NCBI GenBank assembly: GCA_903917735.1
Contig: CAIXBR010000010.1
Span: 1 to 64,000, forward strand
Direction of reading: 5' to 3'
Origin: an uncultured Elusimicrobia bacterium
GTDB taxonomy: Bacteria; Elusimicrobiota; Elusimicrobia; Elusimicrobiales; UBA9959
Length of the DNA: 64,000 nucleotides
Numbering within the stretch: position 1 is the first letter of the stretch; every line of letters starts with the position of its first letter. The notes beneath the pieces were generated by a model that did not search any database, was not told where the DNA came from, and worked only from the letters and a program-made list of their open reading frames with translations. The position numbers and the translations under genes were made by a program. Of the stretch, positions 14,162 to 64,000 are shown piece after piece.

Positions 14162-14748
14162 GATGTATATCCTCCGCTTTTTTTTATCAGGTCTTCCACG
14201 GTAACCGTGCCGGCCGCCTTGAAGGCGCTTATAAAATGCTCGAAGATCTTGCGGGTCATCTCCACGTCGCTAAGGGCGCGGTGCCAGCCGCCGTTGGAGA
14301 TGTTCAGTTCCTCCGCTATCTTGCCCAGGCGGTTGCTCTGGAACTTCCAGTTCTTACGCGCTATGGCCAGGGTGTCCACCACGTTCAGCCTGGGGAACCT
14401 GAGGCCCACGCGCTCGAACTCCGCCTTAAGGAAACCGATGTCGAATTCGGCATTATGCGCCACTATAACGGTGTTCTCCAGCATGGCGAGAAGCTGCGGG
14501 GCCACGCCGCCGAAAGCGGGACTGCCAGCCACCATTACGTCGGTGATGCCGTGTATTTTCGAGACTTCCGTCGGTATGGGCATGCCCGGGTTCACCAGCT
14601 CGGCCAGGGTGCCGACGCGCTCTATGCCGCGGAAGCTTATGGCGGCCACTTCACACACGCGGGCCGCCCTGGGGGAAAGCCCGGTGGTCTCTACGTCTAT
14701 GAACGTGAACACGGCCTCTTCTATTTTTAATTTTCCTATAAGTTCCAT
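14158..14748 (-). CDS. DnaQ-like 3'-5' exonuclease (DEDDh)
   Basis: A 196-residue exonuclease of the DNA polymerase III epsilon/RNase T type. The DEDDh motifs are clear: FIDVETTGL (Exo I), VAHNAEFDIGFL (Exo II) and WHRALSDVEMT (Exo III, with catalytic His). KIHGIT, typical of epsilon-like proteins, is also present. The N-terminal ~15 residues (MELIGKLKIEEAV) precede the fold; there is no polymerase or GIY-YIG domain. It is probably a proofreading or repair exonuclease acting in the cytoplasm. Translation of hutH is coupled to it by the ATGA overlap, although the functions look unrelated. Confidence 0.88.
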   Translation of the reverse strand: MELIGKLKIEEAVFTFIDVETTGLSPRAARVCEVAAISFRGIERVGTLAELVNPGMPIPTEVSKIHGITDVMVAGSPAFGGVAPQLLAMLENTVIVAHNAEFDIGFLKAEFERVGLRFPRLNVVDTLAIARKNWKFQSNRLGKIAEELNISNGGWHRALSDVEMTRKIFEHFISAFKAAGTVTVEDLIKKSGGYTS

Positions 14749-14782
14749 GAATGCCTTACATTAGACCGCGGCCAGATACAGT

Positions 14783-15493
14783 TTATAACACGCCGTAATA
14801 GATATATCTGGTGAAAAACCCTACTCCTAACGTAAAGAATATATTAAGCGCCACGTTGAGGGTGGACATGTCTATGATGCGCTTCCTGTGCATATAGAAG
14901 AGCTGTACCGCCCAGGCGATGGCGAAAGGAACCCACCAGTAGCCGGCCACGAAGAAAAAGGCCCACAGGACCACCCGCTCGAAGATCAGCAGATACTTCT
15001 CGTCGAAATGCGGGTAGGCCTTGCCGAAAAGGTCCTTTTCCAGGAAGTAGATTATCACGGTGGTGGCATGCGTAACTAGCACCAGCATGCAGGCTATGGC
15101 GATCCATTTCTCTCCCAGCAGTGTACCCGGCGCCGGCACGGACACGGGCGAGATCATGAACAGCACGTAGATATGGATCACCTGGTCCAACAGGAAGCTG
15201 ATGGTATTATCCTTGTACCAGCCCTTCATACTGTAGACGCGCAACTCGTCCACGATGTAATGGATGGTGAACATTATCGCCAGCGCCCACCAGCCGTTTA
15301 TCCCCGTGCCGCCGACGCTGACCCAGGTATCGCCGAGGTAAGGCCAGGTCAGCGAGACGGAGACCACGAAGTGGGTCAGGCAATGTATGAGCATGCCCCA
15401 CATGTACTTGCGCTTCAGCTTGTTCACGATGTCGAACTGCAGCGTGAAGTCGGAGAGCAGGTGCGAGAGCAACAGCCGCCAGAATATTGTCAT
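14783..15493 (-). CDS. DUF3307 integral membrane protein
   Basis: A 236-residue polytopic membrane protein. The N-terminus (FWRLLLSHLLSDFTLQFDIVN) matches the HLL-DF-LQ signature of DUF3307. HCLTHFVV and a HYIVDELRVY segment follow, also typical of the family. Roughly six to seven hydrophobic segments are spread over the length. The molecular function of DUF3307 proteins is not known to me. The ribosome-binding site GAGGAA overlaps the stop codon of the upstream cyclase gene, so the two are co-translated. Confidence 0.8.
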   Translation of the reverse strand: MTIFWRLLLSHLLSDFTLQFDIVNKLKRKYMWGMLIHCLTHFVVSVSLTWPYLGDTWVSVGGTGINGWWALAIMFTIHYIVDELRVYSMKGWYKDNTISFLLDQVIHIYVLFMISPVSVPAPGTLLGEKWIAIACMLVLVTHATTVIIYFLEKDLFGKAYPHFDEKYLLIFERVVLWAFFFVAGYWWVPFAIAWAVQLFYMHRKRIIDMSTLNVALNIFFTLGVGFFTRYIYYGVL

Positions 15494-15500
15494 TTGTTCC

Positions 15501-17675
15501 TCAGCCTTTCTCCGTCAGGTTGAATGCCTTGTCCCAGTCTTTGGGCGGCTCCTTGCTGAACAGCTCCGCCTTGTCTACATAGAACTTGGAGGGCCCGTCC
15601 TCCGGACGGGCCGCCAGGGCCGCTTTGAAGTCAGACAGAGAACCGGCGTAGTCTTCCTTGTAGAACTTCTCCTGGCCGGCGTTGTAATGCTTCAGCATCT
15701 CCCTGATCTCCGGCGCGGCCTGGCCTTTAAGGGCGAAAGGCTCGTAGACTTTCACCGGGATGACCTTCCCCACCACCCGGATGCTGCCGAGGAAGCGGTG
15801 GTCGAAGTCGTCCTTGATGCTCTCGAAGGTGTATTCGCTGGTCATGATCTTGGAGGCGAAGTATTTGTTGGCGCCCTCCATGCGGGAGGCCATGTTCACC
15901 GAGTCTCCCATCACGGTGTAGGAAAGGCGGGACCGCGATCCCATGTTCCCCACTACCATCGCGCCGGAGTTCACGCCCACGCGGCATTTCGGCTTTATCG
16001 TGAATTGCGTGAGGGACTCGTTAAGGCGCATCATCTCTTTCTGGCAGTCTATGGCCGCCAGCACGCCGAGCTTGCGATGGTCGGCCTGGTCCAGCGGGGC
16101 GTTCCAGAAGGACACAACGCAGTCGCCGATGTACTTGTCCACCGTGCCGTCGTACTTCAGGATGACTTCGGTGAAGGCGGACAGGTATTCGTTGAGCATG
16201 GCGGTCAGCTCTTCGGGCGACAGTTTTTCCGACATGGTCGTGAACCCGGCCATATCCAGGAAAGAGACCGTCATGTCGCGCTTCTCGCCCCCCAGAGACA
16301 GTTTGGACGGGTCCTTAGTTATCAGGTCCACCACCTTGGGCGACAGGTACTGCCCGAAGGTGTTCTTGATCCACTTCTTCTCCCGACCTTCGGCCAAACC
16401 CTTGTCCACCGTGATGTAGGCGAACGGGAGGAACAGTGCAATTGCTATAGAACCAAAAGGCATCAGGGTATTATTGGACAACAGCGTTATATCCATGACC
16501 AGCAGAGCGGCAAGAACGCCCAGGCAGACCGATATCAAAGAAGCGAAAGAAAAGCGCCGCATGAACACCGGAACCCAGGGAAGCAGAATAATGAGAAGAG
16601 TGCTGTAGATCAGATTGAATTCTCTGCGGAAATCTCCGGCAAGGATGTTATCCACGAAGGTAGCGTGCACTTCAACTCCCGGAAGCTGGTTAAGGAACGG
16701 GCTTGGCATATGGTCGAAAGCGCCCGTAGCCGTAGATCCAATAAATGTAATGCCGCCTTTCAAAGCCTCCTTTTCTTCTTTAGTGAGCTGCCCGCTTATT
16801 ATATCCGCGGCCGAAATATGACGGAAGCTGGCGCCTTTTATATTATTAGCGTCTTTATCCCATGCGGGATGCAGTTTCCAGTTCTTAACATACCTGTAAT
16901 TCAGGATCTTCACGCTGCCGCTCTCGACAAAGATCTGGGAAAGGCTTTTTCCGGAGTAAACCGCGTACGTGCCGGCGCCCAAAGAGGGTACGGAAAGGTC
17001 GGCGCAGTCTTTTCCGCATTTAACATCCGTAAGCCCCGCGGCGCCATATGTCAGGAATTTATCGTCAACCCCATCCGTATTAGTGTCCTCGCCGGGATAG
17101 AAAGGGTAATAACGCCGCACCTGACCGTCCTGGTCCATCGCCTTTTCCACATGCGGCTGGGCGATAAGCGCGCTTGCCTTCGTAAGCCCCATTAACGGTA
17201 ATTTTACTTTGCCCGTATCCAAGTCGACATGTATCAGGTTCACCACATTGCCCGCTCTTGCCACCGCTTCCACATACTTCCTGTCATTTTCGGGATTGTC
17301 CCGGTCCGGCTCCACCAGTATAACATCGACCCCGATAACTTTAACACCGAGCTTGTTAAGTTTATCTACCAGTTCGCCGTAATAGCGCCTCTTGACGGGC
17401 CAGCCATAACGCTCCAAAGTCAATTCGTCAAGCGCTGTTATGGTTATCTTAGGATTAGAGGGCTTGTTGATATATTTTCCGAACAAGAAAGTAAGGGGGA
17501 TCTCCCTCTCACGCAAGGTAAGCGTGGATAATGCCTCAGGAAGGTTTACAATTATGTGGTCCCACCCATAATCCACCTTGCGCGTAACATCAATGGCAAA
17601 AAGGAAAAGCCATACCAGAGTAAAAAAAACAATAATCGCGTATATTTTCTTGTTTCCTGTCGTAATGCTTTTCAT
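15501..17675 (-). CDS. CHASE2-domain adenylate/guanylate cyclase
   Basis: A 724-residue membrane-bound class III nucleotide cyclase. There is one N-terminal transmembrane helix (~10-30), an extracytoplasmic CHASE2 sensor region (~35-345, including ITALDELTLERYGWP and FIGSTATGAFDHMPSP), three short membrane segments (~355-430) and the catalytic domain (~465-640). Metal-binding D474 (SFLDMAGFT) and D518 (YIGDCVVSF) and the transition-state pair N594/R598 (VNMASRM) are all present, so it should be active. A TPR-like helical tail (HYNAGQEKFYKEDYAGSLSDF) follows. The start at 17675 has an AAGGAAA ribosome-binding site; the frame to 17711 adds 12 residues. It lies 40 bp below the histidine kinase gene. 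cAMP as product is likely but not proven. Confidence 0.9.
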   Translation of the reverse strand: MKSITTGNKKIYAIIVFFTLVWLFLFAIDVTRKVDYGWDHIIVNLPEALSTLTLREREIPLTFLFGKYINKPSNPKITITALDELTLERYGWPVKRRYYGELVDKLNKLGVKVIGVDVILVEPDRDNPENDRKYVEAVARAGNVVNLIHVDLDTGKVKLPLMGLTKASALIAQPHVEKAMDQDGQVRRYYPFYPGEDTNTDGVDDKFLTYGAAGLTDVKCGKDCADLSVPSLGAGTYAVYSGKSLSQIFVESGSVKILNYRYVKNWKLHPAWDKDANNIKGASFRHISAADIISGQLTKEEKEALKGGITFIGSTATGAFDHMPSPFLNQLPGVEVHATFVDNILAGDFRREFNLIYSTLLIILLPWVPVFMRRFSFASLISVCLGVLAALLVMDITLLSNNTLMPFGSIAIALFLPFAYITVDKGLAEGREKKWIKNTFGQYLSPKVVDLITKDPSKLSLGGEKRDMTVSFLDMAGFTTMSEKLSPEELTAMLNEYLSAFTEVILKYDGTVDKYIGDCVVSFWNAPLDQADHRKLGVLAAIDCQKEMMRLNESLTQFTIKPKCRVGVNSGAMVVGNMGSRSRLSYTVMGDSVNMASRMEGANKYFASKIMTSEYTFESIKDDFDHRFLGSIRVVGKVIPVKVYEPFALKGQAAPEIREMLKHYNAGQEKFYKEDYAGSLSDFKAALAARPEDGPSKFYVDKAELFSKEPPKDWDKAFNLTEKG

Positions 17676-17682
17676 ATTTTCC

Positions 17683-17712
17683 TTACCCCTTTCCCCTGGC
17701 AGTTGCATCACA
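17683..17712. repeat. Possible short copy of the CTTACC...CAGTTGC repeat family
   Basis: Between the kinase stop and the cyclase start the plus strand reads CCTTACCCC ... GGCAGTTGCATCA. This is the same order of blocks as the repeats at 28321-28399 and 54411-54473. On the minus strand it ends in the cyclase ribosome-binding site. Similarity is short. Confidence 0.35.
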
Positions 17713-17715
17713 AAA

Positions 17716-19731
17716 TTATTTGACCGTAAACCTGAACACCCCGCCGGGCCCCGCTTCCGCCCAGATCCGTCCGCCGTGCAGTTCCACTATCTTCCGGGCG
17801 ATGGCGAGGCCCAGGCCGAAGCCGGTCTCGCCCTCTCCGGCTTTAAGCCGCTTGTACTTCTCGAAAATGGTCTCCAGCTGGTCCGCCGGTATGCCGGGGC
17901 CGCTGTCGGCCACGGTGAACACCAGACCGCCGCCCGCCGCTTTCACCGAAGCCGTCACTTTACCGCCCTCGGGGGTGAACTTCCAAGCGTTCGAAAGCAG
18001 GTTTTCCATCACCCTGCGCAGCAGCGAGGAGTCGCCGGTGAATTCCCCTTTTTCCGCGCCGGCGGTTTCCACCAGCAGCTCTATTCTTTTCTCGCCGAAA
18101 AGCGCGCGGAAACTTTCCGCCGAAGCTGCCAGGAATTCGGCCGCGTTTATCTTTGTCATGTCCGGCTTAAACTGGCCCGCTTCCATGCGCGAAATATCCA
18201 GTATGTTCTCCAAAAGCTTGAAAAGCCTGTCGCTGGAGTCCCTGACGTTCCTGACGTACCCGGCCTGTTTAGCCTCCGCGGGGAACTCCCTTTCCAGAAG
18301 CTTTATGTAGCCCTGCATGGTCAGCAGCGGGGCGCGCAGGTCATGCGCCACGGAATGAAAGAAGTCTTCTTTCATCTGCTGCATCTTCCTTTCCAGCGTT
18401 ATGTCGCGCAGCACCATGAAAACGGCGGGGGTCTGCGTCCTGGCGGAAAGCGTCTGTATGCTGGCCCGGTAATATTTCTTTTTTCCGCCCTTCTCCAGTT
18501 CTATTACTCCGCCCTTTGAAGCCGCTTTTTTGTTCACAAGCCCGGCTATCATGCGGCGCAGCGCCTCGTTCTCCCCCGGCGCGGCGTCCCCCACGCTAAG
18601 CAGCGAGCGCGCGGCAGCGTTGGCGTATAACAGCTCGCCGCGCAGGTCGCAGAGGATGATGGCGTCGTGGATCAGGCTCACCAGCAGTTCCAGCTTCTGC
18701 TTTTCCTCAAAAACTTTCTCTACCTGTATACCGTGGTAGCGGTCGACTTCCCGCATCATGGAGTTGAAGGCCTGCAGCAGCCCGGCCAGCTCCGAGAATT
18801 CCGTCTCCTCGCTTACCTGTGTCTTGAACTCCCCTGCAGAAACGCGCCCGGCGCCTTCCATAAGGGCCGCCACAGGCCCCGCCAGGCTGCGGCTGAACAG
18901 CAGCGCGGAAAAATAGAAGGCGGTGCCCACCGATAGCAGGAAAAAAGCCATAAGCCAGGTTATGCGGTTCACTCCGGCAAAAGCCTCCGCGCGGTCCTCT
19001 ATGGCCAGCACGTAAAGGTCGAAACCGCGCACCGTCGCCGCCGCCCCGATATACGGGCCGTCCCTGCCGTTAATTTCAAAGACCTGCCCGCGCTTCAGTA
19101 TAGAGCGGACTTCCGCGCGGTTGAATTTTTCAAAAGAGCCCGAGAGCGGGAGCGCGTTGCCCTCCGCGTCGGACAGCAGCAGGCCGCCGGTGGCGCCCAG
19201 GCGCTGCGAGCGGAGTTTCTCGAACAGATCTCTGAGGTTGACGGCGGCGAAAGCGTAATAGCCACCGCCCAGGGGATAGACCAGGCGGCAGACCGGCATG
19301 TCGTAGATCATCTCGAAACGACCCAGAGCGGCGCGCCCGCTGGCCGCGGCTTTTCTGAACTGGGGGTCGCCGGCCAGGTCCAGGTAGCCAAAGTACCTTT
19401 TAAGTTCGGGGACCCCGCCGCTGAGGACTTCCCGCCCGTCGGCGCCGGTGAAAGCCAGGTACAGGAATTCCGGGTTGTTCTTCAGCGCTTTCTCCAGGCT
19501 GGCCCTGTTGACGTAGGACGCGTCCGTGTCCCACATGCGTTCGAAGCGGCGGGAAAGGTCCTGCGCCTCGCGCTCCATCATCAGAGATCCCATCTGCGAG
19601 ACGTTCTGCTGCAGGCTGGAGATGTCAGCTTTGGCCCTCGACTGGAAATAGAACAAAAAGATGCCGCCCGGGACTATAGGTATCAGCCCAGCCCCGAACA
19701 CCAGCAGTAAAAGGCGGTTAAGTAAGGTCAC
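17716..19731 (-). CDS. Membrane sensor histidine kinase (Cache-HAMP-PAS-HisKA-HATPase)
   Basis: A 671-residue sensor kinase. Helices at ~5-28 and ~256-280 enclose a periplasmic Cache-like sensor (~30-250); HAMP (~280-335), a coiled PAS region (~345-450), HisKA and HATPase_c follow. The H-box is FFHSVAHDLRAPL with phospho-acceptor H463. The N-box is NLLSNAWKFTP, G1 is DSGPGIP and G2 is GFGLGLAIA, all intact. There is no receiver domain and no response regulator next to it; the nearest is at 34862. Its GTG start overlaps the etfA stop (GTGA at 19728-19731), with AAGGGAAA upstream. It is therefore translated with an electron-transfer flavoprotein, which suggests a metabolic or redox signal; this is inference. 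Confidence 0.9.
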   Translation of the reverse strand: MTLLNRLLLLVFGAGLIPIVPGGIFLFYFQSRAKADISSLQQNVSQMGSLMMEREAQDLSRRFERMWDTDASYVNRASLEKALKNNPEFLYLAFTGADGREVLSGGVPELKRYFGYLDLAGDPQFRKAAASGRAALGRFEMIYDMPVCRLVYPLGGGYYAFAAVNLRDLFEKLRSQRLGATGGLLLSDAEGNALPLSGSFEKFNRAEVRSILKRGQVFEINGRDGPYIGAAATVRGFDLYVLAIEDRAEAFAGVNRITWLMAFFLLSVGTAFYFSALLFSRSLAGPVAALMEGAGRVSAGEFKTQVSEETEFSELAGLLQAFNSMMREVDRYHGIQVEKVFEEKQKLELLVSLIHDAIILCDLRGELLYANAAARSLLSVGDAAPGENEALRRMIAGLVNKKAASKGGVIELEKGGKKKYYRASIQTLSARTQTPAVFMVLRDITLERKMQQMKEDFFHSVAHDLRAPLLTMQGYIKLLEREFPAEAKQAGYVRNVRDSSDRLFKLLENILDISRMEAGQFKPDMTKINAAEFLAASAESFRALFGEKRIELLVETAGAEKGEFTGDSSLLRRVMENLLSNAWKFTPEGGKVTASVKAAGGGLVFTVADSGPGIPADQLETIFEKYKRLKAGEGETGFGLGLAIARKIVELHGGRIWAEAGPGGVFRFTVK

Positions 19732-54410: not shown

Positions 54411-54473
54411 CCCTCTTACCTTCTGCCGCCTTGCGCCGCTCTCCTGCTTTCAGTTGCCGTCAAATAACCGTCA
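54411..54473. repeat. CTCTTACC...CAGTTGC family repeat, second copy
   Basis: Plus strand CCCTCTTACCTTCTG ... GCTCTC ... TTTCAGTTGCCGTCAA ... GTCA matches the order of blocks at 28321-28399. It fills the space between the LysM gene stop and the dprA start, and on the minus strand its last block supplies the dprA ribosome-binding site. Confidence 0.55.
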
Positions 54474-55400
54474 CTTCTTCTTAACAATATACCCTTTAAA
54501 AATGCCGGTTACGGCGTCTATGACCCTTGCCTTAACTATTGAGCCGTCCACGCTTACGACCGCGGCCATGCCCGCATACTGCACTTCGCGGCCCAGTTTT
54601 TTGCCGGCCTTGTCAAAAGCTACTCCGCTTTTCAGGTAAACGGTCAGGTAATCCCCCGGCTTGACCATGTCCGGCCTTTCCATGGAAACGACAATGGACT
54701 CCCCTTCGATAGAAAGGCTTTCATCGGTGAAATTGTCCTTGCCTTTTTCTTTAGCGGTTATAACGCCGTCCTCGTGCCAGAGGGCCGGAACTATCTTAGC
54801 CCTGTCGGACCATTCCTTCTGGTGTTCCGGCATCTCCTCGGAAAGATCGCTGCGCTCCGCATCTTTAAGGGACTCGGACAGTTCCGCGCGCGCGGCCTTA
54901 ACAAAAGACGGCTTCGCGCTTACGGCCGCCGGGACTATTACGGGAACTTCCTTCTGCTGGGCCACGTCCGCGCTGTAAAAATCCGCTTCCTTTACGGTAT
55001 CCGCGCCGGTTATCTCCGGCTCTTTCTTGATCTCGGGCTTGACCTCTTCGGTTATATCCGGAATGACCAGTTCCTGCCTGGGATAAATACGGTCCGGGTT
55101 CTGCACCATTCCGATGTTGGCGTTATAGATCTTGCCCCATTTAAAAGGATCCTTGTAATATTTAGAGGAAAGGCCCCAGAGGGTATCACCATCCGCGACC
55201 AGGTGTTTTTTGCCTACGGAGAAGCCGCCGCCTGTCGGCGCCGTTTCCTTAGCCGGCTCCGCGTTCACGGCTGCGGGGGTAGACGCGACAACCGGCGCGC
55301 CATAATTTTCTTTTATCTCCACCTCAGTAAGCTTGGCCTGCTGGGCGTAAAGCCCGGCGGGAAAAAGAATGATTGCCGCGGCTAAGACCGTTCTTTTCAT
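54471..55400 (-). CDS. Secreted LysM-domain protein
   Basis: A 309-residue protein with signal peptide MKRTVLAAAIILFPAGLYA. One LysM domain spans ~64-114 (HLVADGDTLWGLSSKYYKDP ... NPDRIYPRQELVIP), which binds peptidoglycan. A charged, probably extended region (~115-230) follows. The C-terminal part (~230-309) is beta-rich (MVKPGDYLTVYLKSG, YAGMAAVVSVDGSIVKARVI), similar to the domain that accompanies LysM in several Gram-negative envelope proteins. It likely sits on peptidoglycan in the periplasm. Its start overlaps the comM stop (ATGA at 55397-55400), linking an envelope protein with competence genes. Confidence 0.85.
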   Translation of the reverse strand: MKRTVLAAAIILFPAGLYAQQAKLTEVEIKENYGAPVVASTPAAVNAEPAKETAPTGGGFSVGKKHLVADGDTLWGLSSKYYKDPFKWGKIYNANIGMVQNPDRIYPRQELVIPDITEEVKPEIKKEPEITGADTVKEADFYSADVAQQKEVPVIVPAAVSAKPSFVKAARAELSESLKDAERSDLSEEMPEHQKEWSDRAKIVPALWHEDGVITAKEKGKDNFTDESLSIEGESIVVSMERPDMVKPGDYLTVYLKSGVAFDKAGKKLGREVQYAGMAAVVSVDGSIVKARVIDAVTGIFKGYIVKKK

Positions 55401-56938
55401 ATGCCTCCGAAAGTAGGTACTGATGATTTATCCAACATGCGGTACTGCACGGCTTCTATGACATGCTCCCGCTTTATCGCGGCGGCGCCTTCCAGGTCCG
55501 CTATGGTCCGAGAAATTTTCAGTATCTTATCCAGCGACCTGGCGGAGAAGCCCAGCTTGTTCATAGCGGTCTCAAGCACCGAAGAGGCGCCTTCGGGCAG
55601 GGCGCAATGGCGGCGCAGTTCGGCCCCGGCCATGAATGCGTTCGCCCGCGCGTGGCCGCCCTTGAAGCGGGCGCGCTGTATCTCTATCGCCTTCATCACC
55701 CGCGCAGCTATTACCGCCGAGGGCTCGCCCCTGGGAATAGCTTCCCAATCCGCGTACTTCACCGGCGAAAGCTGCACCTGCAGGTCTATGCGGTCCAGTA
55801 TAGGGCCTGAGACCTTGGCCCGGTATTTGTGCACCTGCAGGGGAGTACAGGCGCAATCCCGCGTGGGATGGCCCAGGTAGCCGCAGGGGCAGGGGTTCAT
55901 GGCGGCCACAAGAAGAAAACGCGCCGGGTAGGCTACGCTCTCCTTTACCCTTGAGACAGTCACCTTCCAGGCTTCAAGCGGTTCGCGCAGCGCCTCTATG
56001 GCGGGGCGGGAGAATTCGGGGAACTCGTCGAGAAAAAGCACCCCGTTATGGGCCAGGGAAACCTCGCCCGGGCGCGGGCTGGCACCGCCGCCTATCAGGG
56101 CTGCATCGGAAATGGTATGGTGCGGCTCGCGGAAAGGCCGTTCCCTCACCAGGCGGCCGGCCAGGCCCAGGCCGCTGACGGAATAAAGCTTTGTGGTCTC
56201 GAGCGCCTCGTCGAAGTTCATAGAGGGCAGCAACGCGCCGAAGCGGCGGGCGAGCATGCTCTTGCCCGCGCCCGGAGGACCTACCAGGATTATGTTGTGG
56301 AAGCCCGCGGCGGCTATCTCCAGGGCGCGTTTGGCGAAAGGCTGGCCTTTCACTTCGGAGAAATCGCCCGCGGGCGCCCCGGCGGCGGGCTTATTCTCCT
56401 GCGCGGCGCAGGGCTTCAGCTCGGCAGCCCCGGTAAGCCAGTCAGCCACCTCCTTCAGGCTGGCTGCGGAAAGACATTTTATCCCCGAGACGGCGGCTTC
56501 GGCCGAGTTGCCGGCCGGAACTACCGCCGTCTTTCCCAACTCTTTCAGCGCCAGCAGCATCGGCAGCACGCCGGCCACCGGGCGCAGCGCGCCGTCCAGC
56601 GCCAGTTCGCCTATAAAAAAAGTGTCTTCCAGGGCAGCCGGCGGTTTCTTGCCCAGCTTACCCGAGGCGGCCAGAACGCCAAGGGCTATGGGCAGGTCGA
56701 AGTGGGTGCCGGCTTTCTTTATCTCGGCGGGAGCCAGGTTCACGGTTATACGCTTGGAAGGGAAATCGAATCCGGAATTGCGCACGGCGGCCACCACCCT
56801 GTCCTTGGCCTCCTTAACTGCGGCGTCGGGCAGGCCTACCACCACATAGGCCGGCAGGCCGGCGGCTATATAAACCTCGGCGTTCACCTGGAAGCCGTCT
56901 ATGCCCTTCAGGCACAATGTGCGAAGCTTGGATAGCAT
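55397..56938 (-). CDS. comM: ComM/YifB family Mg-chelatase-like AAA+ ATPase
   Basis: A 513-residue ATPase. In Vibrio and Acinetobacter ComM is a branch-migration helicase for natural transformation. The N-terminal Lon-like domain (IDGFQVNAEVYIAAGLPAYV, VGLPDAAVKEAKDRV, ITVNLAPAEIKKAG) comes first. Walker A is GPPGAGKSMLARR, Walker B is VLFLDEFPEF, and AMNPCPCGYLGHPTR holds the family's cysteines. PILDRIDLQVQLSPV and DLEGAAAIKREHVIEAVQYR close it. The pair comM-dprA implies the cell can integrate transformed DNA, although no uptake pilus genes are in the window. Confidence 0.95.
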   Translation of the reverse strand: MLSKLRTLCLKGIDGFQVNAEVYIAAGLPAYVVVGLPDAAVKEAKDRVVAAVRNSGFDFPSKRITVNLAPAEIKKAGTHFDLPIALGVLAASGKLGKKPPAALEDTFFIGELALDGALRPVAGVLPMLLALKELGKTAVVPAGNSAEAAVSGIKCLSAASLKEVADWLTGAAELKPCAAQENKPAAGAPAGDFSEVKGQPFAKRALEIAAAGFHNIILVGPPGAGKSMLARRFGALLPSMNFDEALETTKLYSVSGLGLAGRLVRERPFREPHHTISDAALIGGGASPRPGEVSLAHNGVLFLDEFPEFSRPAIEALREPLEAWKVTVSRVKESVAYPARFLLVAAMNPCPCGYLGHPTRDCACTPLQVHKYRAKVSGPILDRIDLQVQLSPVKYADWEAIPRGEPSAVIAARVMKAIEIQRARFKGGHARANAFMAGAELRRHCALPEGASSVLETAMNKLGFSARSLDKILKISRTIADLEGAAAIKREHVIEAVQYRMLDKSSVPTFGGI

Positions 56939-57018
56939 AATAAACCAGCCCCCCCGATAAATAACGGACCAAACCCTCCGCGGAACAGGACTACTGCTGC
57001 CGCCCCCGGCCCGCGGGA

Positions 57019-58122
57019 CTAGCGGTGAAGGGAGAACGCCACTTCCTGGGCGCCGGTCCCTTCAAGCTCAAGTCCGAGAGAATCCCCGCGCAGCACGGCG
57101 CTCGCGAACTCCTGCGGATCCGGGTGGATAGGCTCTACGGTGAACAGCGCCACTCCGGAAGAATAGCTCTCGAGCCGCAGGCCTTTTACATCTACGCGCT
57201 GAAGCTGCGCTTTTATCTTTTCCAGCGCCGCCAGCCCGTCAACTCCGGAGATCTTCACCCGGATCGCGGCGTCAGATCTAAGAAAACGGTCGGATTTGGC
57301 GGCGGCTTCCTGGGCCAGCAGGTCCCCTGCCGAAGCCAGCGCCTTTGAAAAAGAAACAGCTTCCAAGGAGTCTATGGCGTTGGCCTGAATGGAAAGTTCC
57401 AGAAGGGACTTACCGGTCTTCGCTTCGTAGATCACGGCGGAAGCGTCCGCTTTGGAGGGATAAAAGCCGGTATTAATGCCGGCCCCGGAAGGCGAGGGAA
57501 AAGCCGAGGCGAAGATAAGCAGGTCCGCCCCGGCCGCTGAGGCGGCGGCGATCAGCGCCTCCCGCGGGCCCGAGACCAGCGCCTGCTCAGCCGTAAAAGG
57601 GAACTCTTTTATCGTCACGGCCGAACGCTTGGTGAAAGCGTCGCGGAAAGTTTTGGCGAAAGCCGGGGCCGGAGTTCCACCCTGGACGAAAGCGGCCACG
57701 GGGCCGGCCGCCGCCTTCCCGGCCAGGTTAAGGCCGCGCAGGGCTGAAGCCAGCCTGTCATGGTAAACCCACACTTTTGTGCCGACCCGGTAAAAAGCGC
57801 CGTCCTGCCCCTCCGAGACCACCTTGTGTTTTGCCACGTAAAGCTGCGGGGTCTTAAGCGGGCCGTTCTCCAGCGCCGGATAATTCTCGGCCCGGGCGGT
57901 ATCGTCCATATAAAGCTCGGCGGCGCGCCTCACCGCGCTTCTCTGCGCGTCCAGCACGGCTTTGTCACGCGAGGCGCCCAGGTCGGCGGCGTTAAAATCG
58001 GCGGACCCTTCCGCGTAGAGCATCTCCGGGTCGGCTTTAAAGGAGCCCGGGGCCGGGGATGTGGCGCAGGCCGCGGCCGCCGCCAGCAAGGCTGGCGCTA
58101 ATATCCTGGCTAAATTTTTCAT
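57019..58122 (-). CDS. Secreted LPP20/FlgT-like protein, possible lipoprotein
   Basis: A 367-residue envelope protein. The signal is MKNLARILAPALLAAAAACATS; a Cys follows an Ala-rich stretch, a weak lipobox, so lipidation is possible but unsure. Residues ~35-85 (AEGSADFNAADLGASRDKAVLDAQRSAVRRA) match the N-terminal domain pattern of LPP20/FlgT proteins. The central part (~130-250) has an FGG-like sensor-free alpha/beta look with ADLLIFASAFPSPSG. The C-terminus (KISGVDGLAALEKIKAQLQR) resembles the small BON/secretin-like fold that ends such proteins. It lies 12 bases after the GAF kinase gene, so it belongs to the right-end operon. Confidence 0.65.
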   Translation of the reverse strand: MKNLARILAPALLAAAAACATSPAPGSFKADPEMLYAEGSADFNAADLGASRDKAVLDAQRSAVRRAAELYMDDTARAENYPALENGPLKTPQLYVAKHKVVSEGQDGAFYRVGTKVWVYHDRLASALRGLNLAGKAAAGPVAAFVQGGTPAPAFAKTFRDAFTKRSAVTIKEFPFTAEQALVSGPREALIAAASAAGADLLIFASAFPSPSGAGINTGFYPSKADASAVIYEAKTGKSLLELSIQANAIDSLEAVSFSKALASAGDLLAQEAAAKSDRFLRSDAAIRVKISGVDGLAALEKIKAQLQRVDVKGLRLESYSSGVALFTVEPIHPDPQEFASAVLRGDSLGLELEGTGAQEVAFSLHR

Positions 58123-58134
58123 GAAGTCCCCTTC

Positions 58135-60060
58135 CTATTTTTTTGATACCGGCAGCGCGAAGAAGAACTTCGCGCCTTTGCCCGGTTTTGACTCGACCCA
58201 GATCTTGCCGCCGTGCTTTTCCACCACTGATTTGGAAATGGCCAGCCCAAGACCGGTCCCCGGCACCTGGTTGGCGCTGGTCCTGCCGCGGTAAAACTTA
58301 TCGAACACCATCTTCTGTTCTTCCGCCGGTATGCCTGGGCCGTTGTCCTCCACACAGATCACCACGGCCTCGCCCTTGTCCGTGCCGCTCACCAGAACAT
58401 TGGCGCCGGCGCCGGCGTATTTTATGGCGTTTATAAGGAGATTGTCTATCACCTGCGTAATCCACCGGGTGTCGGCCTGGACGTGCGGCAGCACCTTGGA
58501 GGTGCTGTTGGCGATGGAGACCTTGCTTTCCCTGGCCTTCAGCTGGATGGTGGAGACCGAGGAGCGCACCAGCTCCGCCAGGTCCACCTTCTGGAACTCC
58601 ATCTCCACCTTGCCGTTAAGCCGCGATAGGTCCAGCAGGTTGGAGATCAGATTCGTCAGGCGGTTAACCGACTGGTCCGTGACCGTAAGGAAATTATGCT
58701 GCTGCTCGTTTAGCGGCCCCACCTCCCCGCTGAGTATGACGGAGACGAACCCCTTTATGGTGGTCAGCGGGGTTTTCAGTTCGTGGCTGACGGTGGCCAG
58801 GAAATCATCCTTCAGCCTGTTAAGCTGTGCCAGTTCCTCCGCTGTTCTGGAGAGGTTGCCGTATAGGGTGACCATCTCTATGATGATGGCCAGCTCGTCG
58901 GCGATAATGGTGAGGAATTCCAACTGGTCGGGGGTAAAGAAATCCTGGCGGCGGCTGCCCACACGCATCACGCCGATAATGCGGTCGTGCAGGGAAATAG
59001 GGACTATCATCAGGGAATGTATCTCCCACAGCTTGGCGTAGCGGGTGAGCACGTCCGGGTCGTTCTGCGCGTCGGCGGTGATGAAGGGCTTGCGTGTGAG
59101 GAAGGTGCGCACCGAGGCCGAGGCGTGGTTGCTGACCGGGATGCTGTAGAGCATGCGCTCGGAATCGGGGATGCCGAACGAGCCGGTGCTTACCACCAGC
59201 TCCCCTTTGGTCTCGTCGAAGAGCAGGCAGGCCACCACGTCGGCCTCCACCATTTTAGCCACGATATTCAGTATGGCGGCGCAGCCGCCCTGGGGGTCTT
59301 GTTCCGGCCCCGTCACCTTAGTGACCACCTCGTACAGGGCCTTGCGCTCGCGGGCGCGCTGTATCAGGCGCGACCCCGCCACGTCCAGCTCCTTCACCAC
59401 GGCGTTCACCTCTTCCTTCAGGTGCTCTGTCTCTTTTTTCAGGGTAAAGACCTTGTCCGAAACTTTTGAAATGGAGGTAAGTTGGGAGGCCACAAAGCGC
59501 AGGTACGGCTGGGCCGCGTCGAAAGAGGCGGCAGAGGAGGCCCCAAAAACTATCAGCCGTTCCGCGGCTCCCGCCGCTGGTTTGAAAGGGCACATCAGGA
59601 CGGACTTGATGTCGAAAACGGAAAAAAGCTCGGCTACGCCCTGGTAGTCGCCGGTGCGCACGTCGTCGAAGCGCAGCAGCTCGCCTTCGGCGGAACTGCG
59701 GTCGAAGGCGCTCCATTTATAAGAAGTAAGCAGCTTGGGCTCCACCTTGAAATGCTTGAGGTAATTCACCAGCTTCCACTGGCCCTCCTGCTTTTCAAAT
59801 ACCAGCATGGAGCTGTCCGGAAAGGCCTTGTGGAACTTTATCAGATAGTAGTTGGTGATGTCGCCGTAATGCTCGGCCTGCTCAGGGGCGTAAGCGCGCT
59901 CCATGGTTTCCCGGGTGAAGGCGGTGAAGTCCTGGAAAGACCTTTTAGAGACGCGCAGCGCGCTTTCCGCGGGCAGCACGGTCCTGAATTTCAGGTACCA
60001 ATAGGCCCCGAAAGCGCCCGTAGCGCCCAGAACACCCGCACCTATAAGTTCGTTCAGCAT
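58135..60060 (-). CDS. Membrane-anchored GAF sensor histidine kinase
   Basis: A 641-residue kinase with one N-terminal hydrophobic helix (LIGAGVLGATGAFGAYWYL). A first GAF-like sensor (~45-195), a coiled coil (~200-245), a second, clearer GAF domain (~248-400, VVACLLFDETKGELVV ... HDRIIGVMRVGS) and HisKA/HATPase_c follow. The phospho-acceptor is H426 (FLATVSHELKTPL), the N-box is NLLINAIKYAG, G1 is DNGPGIP and G2 is GTGLGLAIS, all intact. No receiver is adjacent. Its start is two bases after the stop of the DnaA-like ATPase, so it is part of the same transcript and possibly the input of that system. Confidence 0.9.
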   Translation of the reverse strand: MLNELIGAGVLGATGAFGAYWYLKFRTVLPAESALRVSKRSFQDFTAFTRETMERAYAPEQAEHYGDITNYYLIKFHKAFPDSSMLVFEKQEGQWKLVNYLKHFKVEPKLLTSYKWSAFDRSSAEGELLRFDDVRTGDYQGVAELFSVFDIKSVLMCPFKPAAGAAERLIVFGASSAASFDAAQPYLRFVASQLTSISKVSDKVFTLKKETEHLKEEVNAVVKELDVAGSRLIQRARERKALYEVVTKVTGPEQDPQGGCAAILNIVAKMVEADVVACLLFDETKGELVVSTGSFGIPDSERMLYSIPVSNHASASVRTFLTRKPFITADAQNDPDVLTRYAKLWEIHSLMIVPISLHDRIIGVMRVGSRRQDFFTPDQLEFLTIIADELAIIIEMVTLYGNLSRTAEELAQLNRLKDDFLATVSHELKTPLTTIKGFVSVILSGEVGPLNEQQHNFLTVTDQSVNRLTNLISNLLDLSRLNGKVEMEFQKVDLAELVRSSVSTIQLKARESKVSIANSTSKVLPHVQADTRWITQVIDNLLINAIKYAGAGANVLVSGTDKGEAVVICVEDNGPGIPAEEQKMVFDKFYRGRTSANQVPGTGLGLAISKSVVEKHGGKIWVESKPGKGAKFFFALPVSKK

Positions 60061-60062
60061 CT

Positions 60063-61898
60063 TTATACCAGGTCTACCAGAGTTTTAGCGTATACGGCTT
60101 TTGAATTAAGCCTGTCGCTGGGCAGCCACGCGCTCTTCACGAGGTAGCTGTCCAGTATCTTGAAAGTAAGGTGGCGGAATTCCCCCTCCTGCGCGCCCAG
60201 CGCCGAGGTGGGCTGCGGGCCCATTATTATGGCCCCGTTAATGCCCCGCTCGCTGGCAAAATTGCCTATTTTAAAAGGTATGCCGTAAAGCTCGTCGGAG
60301 TTGTACTCCTCTATAAAGACCTGGCTCCACTCGGTGTTCAGGCCCAGTTCTTTCGCGCGCTCGTGAACGGAGAAAAGAGCGAACTCGGCCTCGCGCCGCA
60401 TACCCCTGGGATAGAATATCCCCCATTTGAACCAGGCGTCGCGCGCGGAGGGCTGCCAGGAGGCGGCTTTGGCCAAGGCATCCTCGCCGGGAGGCGCGCC
60501 GGCGGCGGCTTCTCCTGCGCCGAGCAAAGTACCCAGCAGCTGGGCGTGGGTGGCGTTATTCATCGGGTTGACCACGAATTTTTCCAGCTTCTTCATGCCT
60601 TCCAGCGTCTTGACCACGTCTCCGAACGGCATGGAACCGGCGGCGAAGTAGTTATTGATCTCTTCCTCCGAAAGCTTTACCTCCAGCCCCTGCAGGAGCT
60701 GGTTCAGGATGGCCTTGTAGGCCTGCGCGGCGGGCATCTTCAGGTCCACCATCCAGCCCTGCGTGAACTGGAACCCGACCGCGTCCTCAAGTCCGGCCAG
60801 CGACTTGGGCGGGAAGACCGAGGTGACCACGATCTGCTTGTTCTGCGTTACAAAATCGTTGAGCCACTTGGAAAGATATTTTTTATTATCTTCCGAGACC
60901 ATAAGCAGGTGCACGTCGTCTATTATCAGCACCTTCACCTTGGCGAACATCTCCTCCAGGCGGGCCATCGCGCCGTCCTTTATGGCCAGTTCAATGCCCT
61001 TGGAAAGCTTTATCCCGTCGGTAACGAAGATATTGCTCTGGCCTATGGAAGCGGAAAGCCCGTAAGAGATGGAATTCACAAAATGGGTCTTGCCGGTGCC
61101 GGGGTTGCCGAAAACCAGCAGGGGGTTGTAGATAACGCCAGGATTTTCCACAACGGCCATGGCGGCGGCGTGGGCGAAACGGTTATGCGAGCCGGCTATC
61201 AGGGTCTGGAAACTGTAGGTGGGGATCAGCGGCAGCTCCATGGACCACCGTGCTTTTATCCTGGACGAAGCAGAAGGCCCGGCCGCGGCAGGCGCGGCGG
61301 CGGAAGCGGCTACAGGGGCCGGGGCTTCTTCCCTTCTGGTCCGCGTGGAAATGGACGGAACGCCCATCCCCTGCCTTCCGGACTGTTTTGCCGGTTCGGG
61401 CGCTGGTTCGGGCGCGGGCCTGGGCTGTTCTACCGGCCTGGGCGCCGGTTCGGGCGCGGGGGCGGGCCCGGGCTGTTCTACCGGCCTGGGCGCTGGTTCG
61501 GGCGCGGGCCTGGGCTGTTCTATCGGCCTGGGCGCCGGCTCGGACGCGGGGGCGGGCCTGGGCTTCTCGGCCTGGGGAGCGGTCTGCTGCTCCATTTTTA
61601 ATTTAGGTCTAGGAGAATCGAAAGGCGCCGGCTCTCCGCCGAAGGCGTCCTCCGGCTCCGGCGCGGCGGCGCTTAGTTCCGCGGTAACCGCCTTCAGCTT
61701 TTTCATCATTTCCATTTCCAGTTTGGAAAGGTAGATGATGAAATCGAATTCGCCTGATGTTTTTTCGGGACGTGAACATACGCTGCCAAGTTTCTTAACT
61801 ATCAGGAAGATGTCTTTCATCTCCCCTTTTATCAGCAGTTTATGCCGGCCTGGATTTTTGTCGTTCGGCGCCGGTGCGACGTCCCACTTTTTTATCAT
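60063..61898 (-). CDS. DnaA-like AAA+ ATPase without DNA-binding domain
   Basis: A 611-residue protein. Residues 1-~75 are a small folded N-domain of unknown family. Residues ~78-215 are a low-complexity PAPRPVEQP-type linker with five to six near repeats. Residues ~220-405 are a DnaA domain III: YSFQTLIAGSHNRFAHAAAM, VYNPL-like IYNPLLVFGNPGTGKTH (Walker A, K270), VLIIDDVH (Walker B, D327/D328) and VVTSVFPPKSL (sensor I). DnaA domain IV is absent. Box VII, which in DnaA reads RL.SRF with the arginine finger, reads AVGFQF here. A ~120-residue C-domain of unknown type (WFKWGIFYPRGMRREAEF ... GINGAIIMGPQP) ends it. It is unlikely to start replication; it may be a regulatory or positioning ATPase. 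Confidence 0.8.
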   Translation of the reverse strand: MIKKWDVAPAPNDKNPGRHKLLIKGEMKDIFLIVKKLGSVCSRPEKTSGEFDFIIYLSKLEMEMMKKLKAVTAELSAAAPEPEDAFGGEPAPFDSPRPKLKMEQQTAPQAEKPRPAPASEPAPRPIEQPRPAPEPAPRPVEQPGPAPAPEPAPRPVEQPRPAPEPAPEPAKQSGRQGMGVPSISTRTRREEAPAPVAASAAAPAAAGPSASSRIKARWSMELPLIPTYSFQTLIAGSHNRFAHAAAMAVVENPGVIYNPLLVFGNPGTGKTHFVNSISYGLSASIGQSNIFVTDGIKLSKGIELAIKDGAMARLEEMFAKVKVLIIDDVHLLMVSEDNKKYLSKWLNDFVTQNKQIVVTSVFPPKSLAGLEDAVGFQFTQGWMVDLKMPAAQAYKAILNQLLQGLEVKLSEEEINNYFAAGSMPFGDVVKTLEGMKKLEKFVVNPMNNATHAQLLGTLLGAGEAAAGAPPGEDALAKAASWQPSARDAWFKWGIFYPRGMRREAEFALFSVHERAKELGLNTEWSQVFIEEYNSDELYGIPFKIGNFASERGINGAIIMGPQPTSALGAQEGEFRHLTFKILDSYLVKSAWLPSDRLNSKAVYAKTLVDLV

Positions 61899-61903
61899 AG
61901 TGC

Positions 61904-63913
61904 TCAGCGAAGTATAAGATCGGTCACAAGGTCCAGCGCCGCGGAGTGGCTGAAGTTGGACGGATCGTAATGCCTAAAAAACCCCCCGGAAGAAGAGAAA
62001 GCGTTCTCCATCTCGTAGACTTTTTCCTGGGGGATGTTGCCGACGCAGATCAGGCCCAGTGCCCCGATGTCCGCCACCGACTGGTGAAGGAAATTGGCGT
62101 TTATATCAGGATCGCACTCGCGCACCGCGGCGCGCTTGATGAACATGGGCTTCGTAGGCGATTTCAGACAGATAGAATCCAGCTCGGCCATGACGGTCGC
62201 GCAAAGCGCCCTGTCTTCGGCGGCATAAAGGAACATCAGCGCCTTAACGCGCTCCGCGGGTATGCCGTCCGGAACGGGCTTGGAAGCCAGGACGTCGAGG
62301 TCCCCTGCCTGTGAACGGGAAGTTTCCCCAAGGGTAGCGCCTGCGTCGGAAATTACGGTTTTACCTCCTTCCCCGGAAGCGCCGGGCGGCGGCGCCACCA
62401 CCAGCGTCTCGTCACCTGACTGCGCGGCCGGGGCCTGCCCGGACAAAAGCGAAATGGCCGGCTCGAGTTGTATCCCCTGGGAGGCCTGCGTCTCAGGCGC
62501 CGGAGCAGCCGCATCCTGCGCACGAAGTTCTATTCCACCGCCCTGTATTCCAGGCTGCGGTTCGGAAAGGGGCTCCGGCTGCGATACCGACTGTACTTCA
62601 GGCTGTGCTCCAGGCTGCATGCCTAAATCAAGTTCCGCTCCGGCAGGCTTAACGGACGGCTGTTTCGCAACTACCTCAGGCTGCGCCTCTGAAAACACAT
62701 TTTGGGCCGCCTCGATGGCCGGCTCAACAGGCTGCGGGATCTGCGGGGTTTCCGCTGCCCGCTCAGCCTGGGTCACCGGTTCAGCCTCGGGCTCCGGAGC
62801 GGGCGTCTCCCCCGCGTCCTGGACAGGCTGCTCTTCGGCCTTTGAAGGTTCAATGGTAAACGCCTCGAAACCGGTTTCAGGCTCGGCCGCGGGTCCGGGC
62901 AGAGCCGGCTCGGACTCCGGGGAAGGCTGTAGCTCTTCGGGCTGCGGCATTTCTGTTTTTTCTTCTTCGGGCTGGTTGTTTCCCACGTCCCCCCCCTGCG
63001 GCTGTGCGGCCGCTTTAAGTTGCCGTTCGAATTCTATTAGTTCGTCCATACCCGGCTCTATATCCCCGGACACTTCCGCCTGAGGCTGGGCGGCGTCTAT
63101 GGCGACTTCAGGCTCCGGCCGGCTATTTTCAACTGGGGCAGGCTCGTCTTTTGAAGGCTCTCCGGTCCCGGAAAGCTGCATGAGCGCGTCTATGTCCGGT
63201 ATGCCAAAATCCCTGGTAGTATCATAAGGCCTGACGGAGCTGCGGACTTCGGAAAACTGGTCGGCCTGCGGAGCTTCGGACAGTTCGGCCTGCGGCATTA
63301 TAAGGTCCGGCTCGGGTTGCATCGCCTCCTCCTGCGGGGGCAGTTGCTCTTGCGCAGGCGGGGTCAGCTCGGGAACGGAAAGGGACGGGCCTGCCGGCTC
63401 CGCAGTATTTTCAGCGGAAGGTTCCAACGGGACTTCTTGAAGTTCAACGGGAGAGTCGGTTTTTTTCTCTTCCTTTTGCGCCTCTTCTCCGAACATGTAA
63501 TCCCCCAGGCTCAGAAGAACGAGTTTTTCCTGGGCTGGTTCTATCTGCACTGGCGCCGGCTCGGGCTGTTTTTCCTCCGGTGCCTCCGCGCCTTCGGGCA
63601 GGCCGGAGAAAGCCTCGAGAATTACAGTTTTGTCGGCATCGGCTGCCCTGGGTTCCGGTTCTGACACGGCCGTCTTTTCCGCGGGGACTTCTGCCCCTTC
63701 GGGAAGATTTGAAAAGGCCTGGAGGACTACCGTCTTATCGGCATCATAGGCAGGAGGTGCGGCTTTCATCTCGCGTTTCGGCGCGGTCTCTGCGGGCGGC
63801 ATTTCCGGCATTCTAATGCCGTCGAGTATGGACGGCATCTTGTTGAGCAGGCCGTTGAGGTCCGAAAGGATATCGTCTATCGATTCTTTCTTTTTTCCGT
63901 CTTTACTATCCAT
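61904..63913 (-). CDS. Acidic Pro/Glu-rich scaffold-like protein with folded C-terminal domain
   Basis: Unrecognised 669-residue cytoplasmic protein. The N-terminus (KKESIDDILSDLNGLLNKM) is helical. Two near-identical blocks, DADKTVVLQAFSNLPEGAE (57-75) and DADKTVILEAFSGLPEGAE (92-110), are followed by ~430 residues dominated by Pro, Glu, Ala and Gln. This region is almost surely disordered and holds further KTV/DETL motifs (DETLVVAPP, GKTVISDAG). The last ~120 residues (VKALMFLYAAEDRAL ... ALGLICVGNIPQEKV ... AALDLVTDLILR) form an alpha/beta domain. The start at 63913 has GGGGGCGG six bases upstream; the GTG at 63934 is less likely. The gene precedes the DnaA-like ATPase by five bases. A scaffold role is inferred. 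Confidence 0.65.
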   Translation of the reverse strand: MDSKDGKKKESIDDILSDLNGLLNKMPSILDGIRMPEMPPAETAPKREMKAAPPAYDADKTVVLQAFSNLPEGAEVPAEKTAVSEPEPRAADADKTVILEAFSGLPEGAEAPEEKQPEPAPVQIEPAQEKLVLLSLGDYMFGEEAQKEEKKTDSPVELQEVPLEPSAENTAEPAGPSLSVPELTPPAQEQLPPQEEAMQPEPDLIMPQAELSEAPQADQFSEVRSSVRPYDTTRDFGIPDIDALMQLSGTGEPSKDEPAPVENSRPEPEVAIDAAQPQAEVSGDIEPGMDELIEFERQLKAAAQPQGGDVGNNQPEEEKTEMPQPEELQPSPESEPALPGPAAEPETGFEAFTIEPSKAEEQPVQDAGETPAPEPEAEPVTQAERAAETPQIPQPVEPAIEAAQNVFSEAQPEVVAKQPSVKPAGAELDLGMQPGAQPEVQSVSQPEPLSEPQPGIQGGGIELRAQDAAAPAPETQASQGIQLEPAISLLSGQAPAAQSGDETLVVAPPPGASGEGGKTVISDAGATLGETSRSQAGDLDVLASKPVPDGIPAERVKALMFLYAAEDRALCATVMAELDSICLKSPTKPMFIKRAAVRECDPDINANFLHQSVADIGALGLICVGNIPQEKVYEMENAFSSSGGFFRHYDPSNFSHSAALDLVTDLILR

Positions 63914-63963
63914 AGAACCGCCCCCGTGCCGCACAGGTAAATATATACGCGCGTTACTTTTTA

Positions 63964-63969
63964 ATTATA
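63964..63969 (-). promoter_or_regulatory. Extended -10 promoter element of the right-end operon
   Basis: Minus-strand TGCTATAAT contains a perfect TATAAT (63969-63964) with the extended TGn. The -35 region is poor (TTTAAT about 18 bases upstream). The start codon is about 50 bases downstream, with a GC-rich ribosome-binding site. Confidence 0.6.
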
Positions 63970-64000
63970 GCAAGTTGTTTGCGCAGGATTAAACCTCTTT

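What the first reader, a model, noticed from the sequence alone, without database searches (positions are those of the whole stretch)
57019..63969. Undescribed four-gene system: acidic scaffold, DnaA-like ATPase, GAF kinase, envelope protein
One promoter (TGCTATAAT at 63964) drives four genes with gaps of 5, 2 and 12 bases. The order is a disordered scaffold, a DnaA-derived ATPase, a membrane sensor kinase and a secreted LPP20/FlgT-like protein. The composition suggests signal-controlled assembly at the membrane (polarity, motility or cell-cycle control). I know no named system with these parts.
Basis: partly seen in the sequence, partly recalled or inferred. Interest (0 to 1): 0.78.

Follow-up and report, generated by a model that had tools for sequence, protein, structure and literature searches.

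The report
Elusimicrobiota DnaA-like ATPase and kinase operon
In this little-studied bacterial phylum, a protein descended from the DNA-replication starter DnaA has lost its DNA-binding part and is encoded with a companion protein and a sensor kinase; in sister lineages the same genes sit beside a pilus-motor gene and a microcompartment that handles DNA sugars, which points to an undescribed control module for pili or DNA uptake.

Summary
The genes, their gaps and the promoter are real. The extended -10 box TTGCTATAAT upstream of gene A is conserved in 25 of 33 related loci. The boundary and reading need changing. (1) A-B-C is the conserved core: A and B carry the same previously unannotated C-terminal domain, and C is a GAF histidine kinase. 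B-C adjacency reaches other classes of Elusimicrobiota. (2) D is a FlgT-like lipoprotein. In most relatives it heads a trio with a GNA1162-like and a CsgG lipoprotein, both missing here, and nothing marks a transcript end between D and yifB-LysM-dprA. (3) Outside this family a distinct PilT clade sits next to A/B in 30 of the 33 sampled genomes that hold both. The cluster lies in or beside a sugar-phosphate (SPU) microcompartment locus, which in the window's genome is 30 kb away. (4) B is a DnaA paralogue without the DNA-binding domain. In this lineage it has also lost the arginine finger and sensor II arginine. Best reading, inferred from neighbourhood only: a kinase-controlled AAA+ switch acting on a PilT-type motor (type IV pilus, possibly DNA uptake). 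No named system matched in the libraries and papers searched.

The parts
63964..63992 (-). Promoter of gene A: TTAATC (63992-63987), 17-base spacer, extended -10 TTGCTATAAT (63973-63964)
   Evidence: TGnTATAAT in 25 of 33 relatives upstream of A and in none upstream of the other genes tested; overlaps the 3' end of an upstream gene whose stop is at 63956-63954
61904..63913 (-). Gene A: acidic, Pro/Glu/Gln-rich adaptor with conserved N-terminal helix motif (ESIDDILSDLNGLLNKM) and folded C-terminal domain
   Evidence: no Pfam/NCBIfam family
61907..62272 (-). C-terminal domain of A: four beta-alpha units, Rossmann-like; homologous to the C-terminal domain of B and of A-like proteins beside PilT in other classes
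   Evidence: AlphaFold pLDDT about 95 over this part; hhalign to A-like proteins of other classes E 4.4e-8, 94.9%; to B directly E 3.3e-5, 72%; no PDB match with E <= 0.001
60063..61898 (-). Gene B: DnaA-derived AAA+ protein without DNA-binding domain
   Evidence: PF00308 E 4.5e-31; profile and fold match to DnaA domain III
61659..61898 (-). N-terminal domain of B (beta-beta-alpha-beta-alpha), conserved across the phylum; also at the start of some A-like proteins (L089)
60579..61235 (-). AAA+ domain of B: Walker A GNPGTGKTH and Walker B LIIDDVH kept; box VII arginine finger and sensor II arginine lost
   Evidence: alignment with the genome's own DnaA and B of other classes
60066..60443 (-). 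C-terminal domain of B, shared with A, in place of DnaA domain IV
58135..60060 (-). Gene C: membrane-anchored GAF histidine kinase (H-box, N, G1, F, G2 boxes readable)
   Evidence: orthologues next to B in other classes, with three GAF domains
57019..58122 (-). Gene D: lipoprotein, weakly FlgT/LPP20-like; accessory rather than core
   Evidence: FlgT_N E 0.015 for one relative; 9hmf lipoprotein E 0.019 and FlgP E 0.8; homologues found in the window's class only
55397..56938 (-). yifB (comM-like), probably same transcript; 80 bases after D
   Evidence: TIGR00368 573 bits; no conserved promoter before it
54471..55400 (-). LysM protein, probably same transcript
   Evidence: PF01476
53271..54401 (-). 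dprA, probably last gene of the transcript (topA after it has its own conserved TATAAT)
   Evidence: ORF named from sequence inspection; string conserved

Best explanation
A-B-C is a phylum-specific signalling module built on a repurposed DnaA paralogue. Shown: B keeps ATP-binding motifs but not DnaA's DNA-binding domain; A and B share a C-terminal domain; both are encoded with a GAF histidine kinase; in sister lineages the same genes directly follow a distinct PilT-clade ATPase gene. Inferred: the kinase senses a cytoplasmic or membrane signal; A and B assemble on each other through the shared domains in an ATP-dependent way; the assembly docks on and switches a PilT-type hexameric motor, i.e. 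it controls type IV pilus retraction or the timing of DNA uptake. In the window's family the dedicated PilT gene is gone, so the module would act on one of the genome's other PilT proteins (e.g. the pilB-pilT-pilC locus on contig C11). D and the downstream yifB-LysM-dprA genes share the transcript but are not needed for the core.
For: A-B and B-C gaps have medians of 6 and 3 bases over 41 loci each. B-C adjacency in other families and classes (L086, L088-L093, L097-L099). PilT-clade gene: 36 of 199 sampled genomes carry it; 30 of the 33 that also have detectable B hold both within about 3.5 kb, the other three on separate contigs, mostly near contig ends (compared by hand). The clade is monophyletic (100/99) and passes the PilT cut-off. 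The pilT-A-B order persists in genomes with no shell-protein match (G069, G084, G087, G089, G104, G105, G138). By hand comparison all 112 sampled genomes with B also have a PilT-family gene, against 36 of 87 without. Shared domain A/B. In f11 a single-domain response regulator directly follows C.
Against: All evidence is gene neighbourhood, inherited within one phylum, so the genomes are not independent. The PilT clade is absent from the window's own genome and its family. Gut relatives kept B and D but lost C. PilM was not detected in them, so a complete pilus is doubtful there. The PilT co-occurrence is confounded by the PilT-poor family f10. In the window's lineage B lacks the arginine finger and sensor II arginine, so cycling ATPase activity is doubtful. 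No A-B, B-PilT or C-partner interaction was predicted or tested.
Confidence: 0.38

Rival explanations
1. The module serves the sugar-phosphate (SPU) microcompartment: kinase C with A and B controls its expression, assembly or placement, and the PilT-clade ATPase is a cytoplasmic motor recruited to it rather than a pilus motor.
For: BMC shell genes lie within about 0.5-5 kb of B in some 20 sampled genomes of other families and within 13-35 kb in the window's family where both are on one contig (hand comparison). Contiguous AldDH-BMC-DeoC-PilT-A-B-C-D-yifB-dprA-topA in L083. tpiA-deoC still directly precede B in the genome sized like E. minutum. The window genome has BMC, DeoC, aldehyde dehydrogenase and PTAC genes on the same contig.
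Against: About 50 gut genomes and several families have B with no BMC match. The pilT-A-B order survives where no shell-protein match was found. SPU catalogues (PMC4207490, PMC8217296) mention no such genes.
Confidence: 0.22
2. No single system: A, B, C and D are separately acting housekeeping or regulatory genes kept in order by operon inheritance, like yifB-dprA-topA.
For: The whole string dnaJ-rsmE-mtaB-z-A-B-C-D-yifB-LysM-dprA-topA is conserved in the window's family. C is lost while B stays in gut lineages. D has its own trio with GNA1162-like and CsgG genes.
Against: B-C and pilT-A-B orders recur in classes where every flanking gene differs. A and B share a domain.
Confidence: 0.2
3. One reading: signal-controlled assembly of an envelope, polarity or cell-cycle complex with D as the secreted effector.
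For: Membrane-anchored kinase and lipoprotein on one transcript; D is kept with B in gut lineages that lost C.
Against: D was found only in the window's class, and A-B-C exists without it elsewhere. No polarity or division gene was seen in these neighbourhoods.
Confidence: 0.12
4. B is a replication regulator of the Hda or DnaC type that acts on DnaA or the helicase.
For: AAA+ domain closest to DnaA domain III; B of other classes passes NCBI's DnaA cut-off.
Against: Far below the Hda cut-off (31.8 vs 194.8 bits). No DNA-binding domain. Genome has a separate canonical DnaA. Neighbours are pilT and a kinase, not replication genes. Arginine finger lost here.
Confidence: 0.05

Closest known systems
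DnaA (and Hda)
   Same: AAA+ domain III with Walker A and B; B of other classes also keeps box VII arginine and sensor II NIRELEG
   Different: No domain IV (DNA binding), different N- and C-terminal domains, arginine finger and sensor II arginine lost in this lineage; separate DnaA present
PilT/PilU type IV pilus retraction ATPases (TIGR01420)
   Same: The PilT-clade neighbour in sister lineages passes the cut-off and keeps Walker A
   Different: Own clade, lacks the AIRNLIRE-type motif in the form seen in this genome's C11 PilT; absent from the window's genome
Pilus chemosensory or two-component control (Pil-Chp, Frz, PilS-PilR)
   Same: A kinase next to a pilus-motor gene; in f11 also a single-domain response regulator
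   Different: No methyl-accepting, CheA or CheW gene seen; a DnaA-derived AAA+ protein and its domain-sharing partner instead
SPU bacterial microcompartment loci (Axen 2014 PMC4207490; Sutter 2021 PMC8217296)
   Same: Same locus in sister families: DeoC, RpiB, aldehyde dehydrogenase, BMC shell genes
   Different: PilT, A, B and C are not mentioned in those papers and persist without shell matches
CsgG / GNA1162 / FlgT-like lipoprotein clusters
   Same: D is followed by GNA1162-like and CsgG lipoproteins in most relatives
   Different: Both are absent from this place in the window's genome; no CsgG orthologue of the expected identity elsewhere in it

Membership tests
DnaA initiator | AAA+ domain III with Walker A/B | tested here: met
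   PF00308 E 4.5e-31; DnaA structures are the best matches; GKTH and DDVH
DnaA initiator | Domain IV helix-turn-helix (Bac_DnaA_C) | tested here: not met
   No match in Pfam; C-terminus is the domain shared with A
DnaA initiator | Box VII arginine finger and sensor II arginine | tested here: not met
   GFQFTQGW and FGDVVKTLEG in the window; SRFEWGL and NIRELEG kept in other classes
Hda | Score above TIGR03420 cut-off | tested here: not met
   31.8 bits against 194.8
Hda | Beta-clamp binding motif | not tested
   -
Two-component histidine kinase | HisKA with phospho-accepting His and HATPase_c | tested here: met
   H-box SHELKTP and G2 box GTGLGLAIS readable
Two-component histidine kinase | Cognate response regulator beside it | tested here: inconclusive
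   None among the conserved genes of this string; a single-domain regulator follows C only in f11; the regulator at L002:3520-3960 is not conserved there in relatives
PilT-linked module | PilT-clade gene next to A/B | tested here: not met
   Met in 30 of 33 sampled genomes with both genes, but the clade is absent from the window's genome
PilT-linked module | Effect on pilus retraction or DNA uptake | not testable with these tools
   needs genetics
SPU microcompartment locus | Shell and DeoC/AldDH genes adjacent | tested here: not met
   About 30 kb away on the same contig in the window's genome; adjacent in sister families
FlgT / LPP20 (gene D) | FlgT_N/M/C or LPP20 match | tested here: inconclusive
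   FlgT_N E 0.015 below cut-off; FlgP E 0.8
Anti-phage defence system | Match of the set to a PADLOC system | tested here: not met
   Only weak generic ATPase/kinase-domain matches

The most novel reading that the evidence does not exclude
A DnaA paralogue has been turned into a kinase-controlled adaptor that loads or remodels a PilT-family motor, as helicase loaders of the same AAA+ clade do for hexameric helicases. It would couple pilus-driven DNA uptake to a microcompartment that burns deoxyribose: an uptake-to-catabolism super-locus (pilT, A, B, C, comM-like yifB, dprA, DeoC compartment).
Probability: 0.13. Interest if true: 0.85.

Novelty: categorically new. Interest (0 to 1): 0.62.

Why it matters
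It would be a case of the replication initiator's ATPase being recruited, without its DNA-binding domain, into a signalling module tied by position to a pilus motor and to a microcompartment, across a phylum whose cell biology is almost unstudied. A and the C-terminal domain shared by A and B have no family name, and B of other classes scores above NCBI's cut-off for DnaA, so it could be misnamed DnaA. The novelty call is provisional: only this phylum and an open-access library could be searched.

Tried and rejected
The suspicion that the promoter was only the 3' coding end of the upstream gene was rejected: the box is conserved where that gene was not found. The idea that long B ORFs of gut relatives are A-B fusions was not supported; they start with B's own N-terminal domain and have a longer linker. 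Flagellar link: FliG_C matches occur widely but in long frames of mostly 480-690 residues, not FliG-sized ones, so they were not used as flagellum evidence. PDB fold search with the A domain gave only weak Rossmann-type matches (PIWI MID, E 0.006). Defence system: rejected. Literature searches for PilT with microcompartments, DnaA-like with PilT and kinase, and Elusimicrobia with pili gave no description.

Full report
What was checked. The window lies on contig C10 of an Elusimicrobiota genome (G000; record titles of relatives). The four ORFs, their strand and their gaps are as described. Just outside the window, upstream of A, lie a zinc-ribbon/membrane gene with weak HEAT similarity (called z here; a relative of it scored HEAT_2 at 7e-5), an mtaB-like gene, and the rsmE, dnaJ, dnaK string. 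Downstream of D lie yifB, a LysM protein, dprA and topA.

Promoter and transcript. The called promoter overlaps the last codons of z in this genome, so I doubted it. Counting over relatives reversed that: TGnTATAAT stands upstream of A in 25 of 33 loci and upstream of no other gene of the string; TATAAT is in 29 of 33 with 1.9 expected by shuffling. It is kept where z was not found, so it is not explained by coding. The next conserved TATAAT is before topA. The simplest transcript is A-B-C-D-yifB-LysM-dprA, not four genes. This is inferred from sequence; no RNA data were available.

Conservation. In 43 loci of relatives the order mtaB-(z)-A-B-C-D-(X1-X2)-yifB-LysM-dprA-topA is almost unbroken. 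A-B and B-C gaps have medians of 6 and 3 bases; C-D is looser (median 20). X1 is a GNA1162-like lipoprotein and X2 a CsgG lipoprotein. They form a run with D in most relatives and are missing between D and yifB in the window and in a few others (L043, L057, L063, L074). The best CsgG match elsewhere in the window's genome is only 35% identical, so the orthologue appears lost, allowing for a 93% complete assembly.

Deeper relatives. A 199-genome sample of the phylum has B-like matches in 114 genomes. Two of these, G098 and G203, look like canonical DnaA by frame length, which leaves 112 by my hand count. Loci from other families show B followed by the kinase with quite different flanks. There the gene before A/B is a PilT-family ATPase. 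These PilT proteins form one clade apart from the genomes' other PilT genes (100/99 support), pass NCBI's PilT cut-off, and by hand comparison lie within about 3.5 kb of B in 30 of 33 sampled genomes with both; in the other three the genes are on separate contigs. The clade is absent from the window's genome; the only matches in its family at the search threshold (G082, G205; 48-49% identity) are at the level of other PilT paralogues and are not beside B.

Microcompartment. The same loci carry DeoC, RpiB, triosephosphate isomerase, PTAC, aldehyde dehydrogenase and BMC shell genes, the content of the sugar-phosphate-utilising (SPU) type of PMC4207490 and PMC8217296. Those papers mention no PilT, DnaA or Elusimicrobia. 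L083 links everything: aldehyde dehydrogenase, shell gene, DeoC, PilT, A, B, C, D, yifB, dprA, topA in one run. In the window's genome the shell genes are at C10 91.8-96.9 kb, 30 kb from B. In a genome of 1,643,562 bases, which from memory is the size of Elusimicrobium minutum, tpiA and deoC still precede B although no shell gene was found. B therefore outlives the compartment, and the pilT-A-B order also survives where no shell match was found; this is why I rank a PilT-type motor above the compartment as the likelier partner.

The proteins. B's AAA+ domain matches DnaA domain III by profile and by fold. It has no DnaA domain IV. Its C-terminal domain is homologous to that of A-like proteins of other classes (97.3%, E 2.5e-11), which in turn match A's C-terminal domain (94.9%, E 4.4e-8); the direct A-B comparison is weaker (72%, E 3.3e-5). 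Predicted models give the same order of four beta-alpha units. The B model is of moderate quality overall (mean pLDDT 69). In other classes B keeps the DnaA box VII arginine and sensor II arginine; in the window's lineage both are gone while Walker A and B remain. I infer an ATP-binding switch rather than a cycling ATPase here. C is a membrane-anchored GAF kinase with readable catalytic boxes; relatives in other classes have three GAF domains. D is weakly FlgT-like and was found only in the window's class.

How it may work. Shown: shared operon, shared domain, kinase linkage, PilT linkage in sister lineages, loss of DNA-binding domain. Inferred: ATP-dependent A-B assembly, control by C, action on a PilT-type motor. 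In the window's family the target would have to be another PilT, for example that of pilB-pilT-pilC on contig C11, where a ComEC-like gene also lies (names from sequence inspection). The downstream yifB and dprA fit a DNA-uptake role, but yifB-dprA-topA is, from general knowledge, a common bacterial gene string and is weak evidence.

Limits. All support is comparative within one phylum. Several counts were made by comparing printed tables by hand. Other phyla were not scanned. Co-occurrence with PilT is confounded by ancestry. PilM was not detected in the gut lineages that keep B, which weakens a full-pilus reading there.

Noticed in passing
window 56939-57018: The GNA1162-like and CsgG lipoprotein genes found between D and yifB in most relatives are missing here and in a few other genomes (L043, L057, L063, L074), suggesting repeated loss.
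   Followed up: partly
L095:7437-9131: B of other classes scores above NCBI's DnaA equivalog cut-off (373 vs 343.9 bits) although it lacks the DNA-binding domain, so it could be misnamed DnaA.
   Followed up: no
genomes, e.g. G000:C46:102705-103022: FliG_C-like domains occur in many Elusimicrobiota genomes inside long frames of mostly 480-690 residues, not FliG-sized ones.
   Followed up: no
L002:3520-5440: A response regulator and second histidine kinase sit upstream of mtaB in this genome but not at that place in relatives.
   Followed up: no
window 63550-63800 (- strand), gene A: Repeated DKTV[IV]L-[EQ]AFS-LPEGAE motifs in the low-complexity part of A; could be phosphorylation or binding motifs.
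   Followed up: no
G045:C1:84747-85298: A partial second PilT match with one internal stop in the genome whose size fits E. minutum; a full-length PilT is elsewhere in it (C1:595395-596462).
   Followed up: no
L151:3616-5574 and 14538-18675: Contig C11 of the same genome carries a ComEC-like gene and pilB-pilT-pilC about 20 kb from BMC shell genes.
   Followed up: partly
upstream of topA in relatives: topA has its own conserved TATAAT (20 of 25 loci), marking a likely transcript boundary after dprA.
   Followed up: partly
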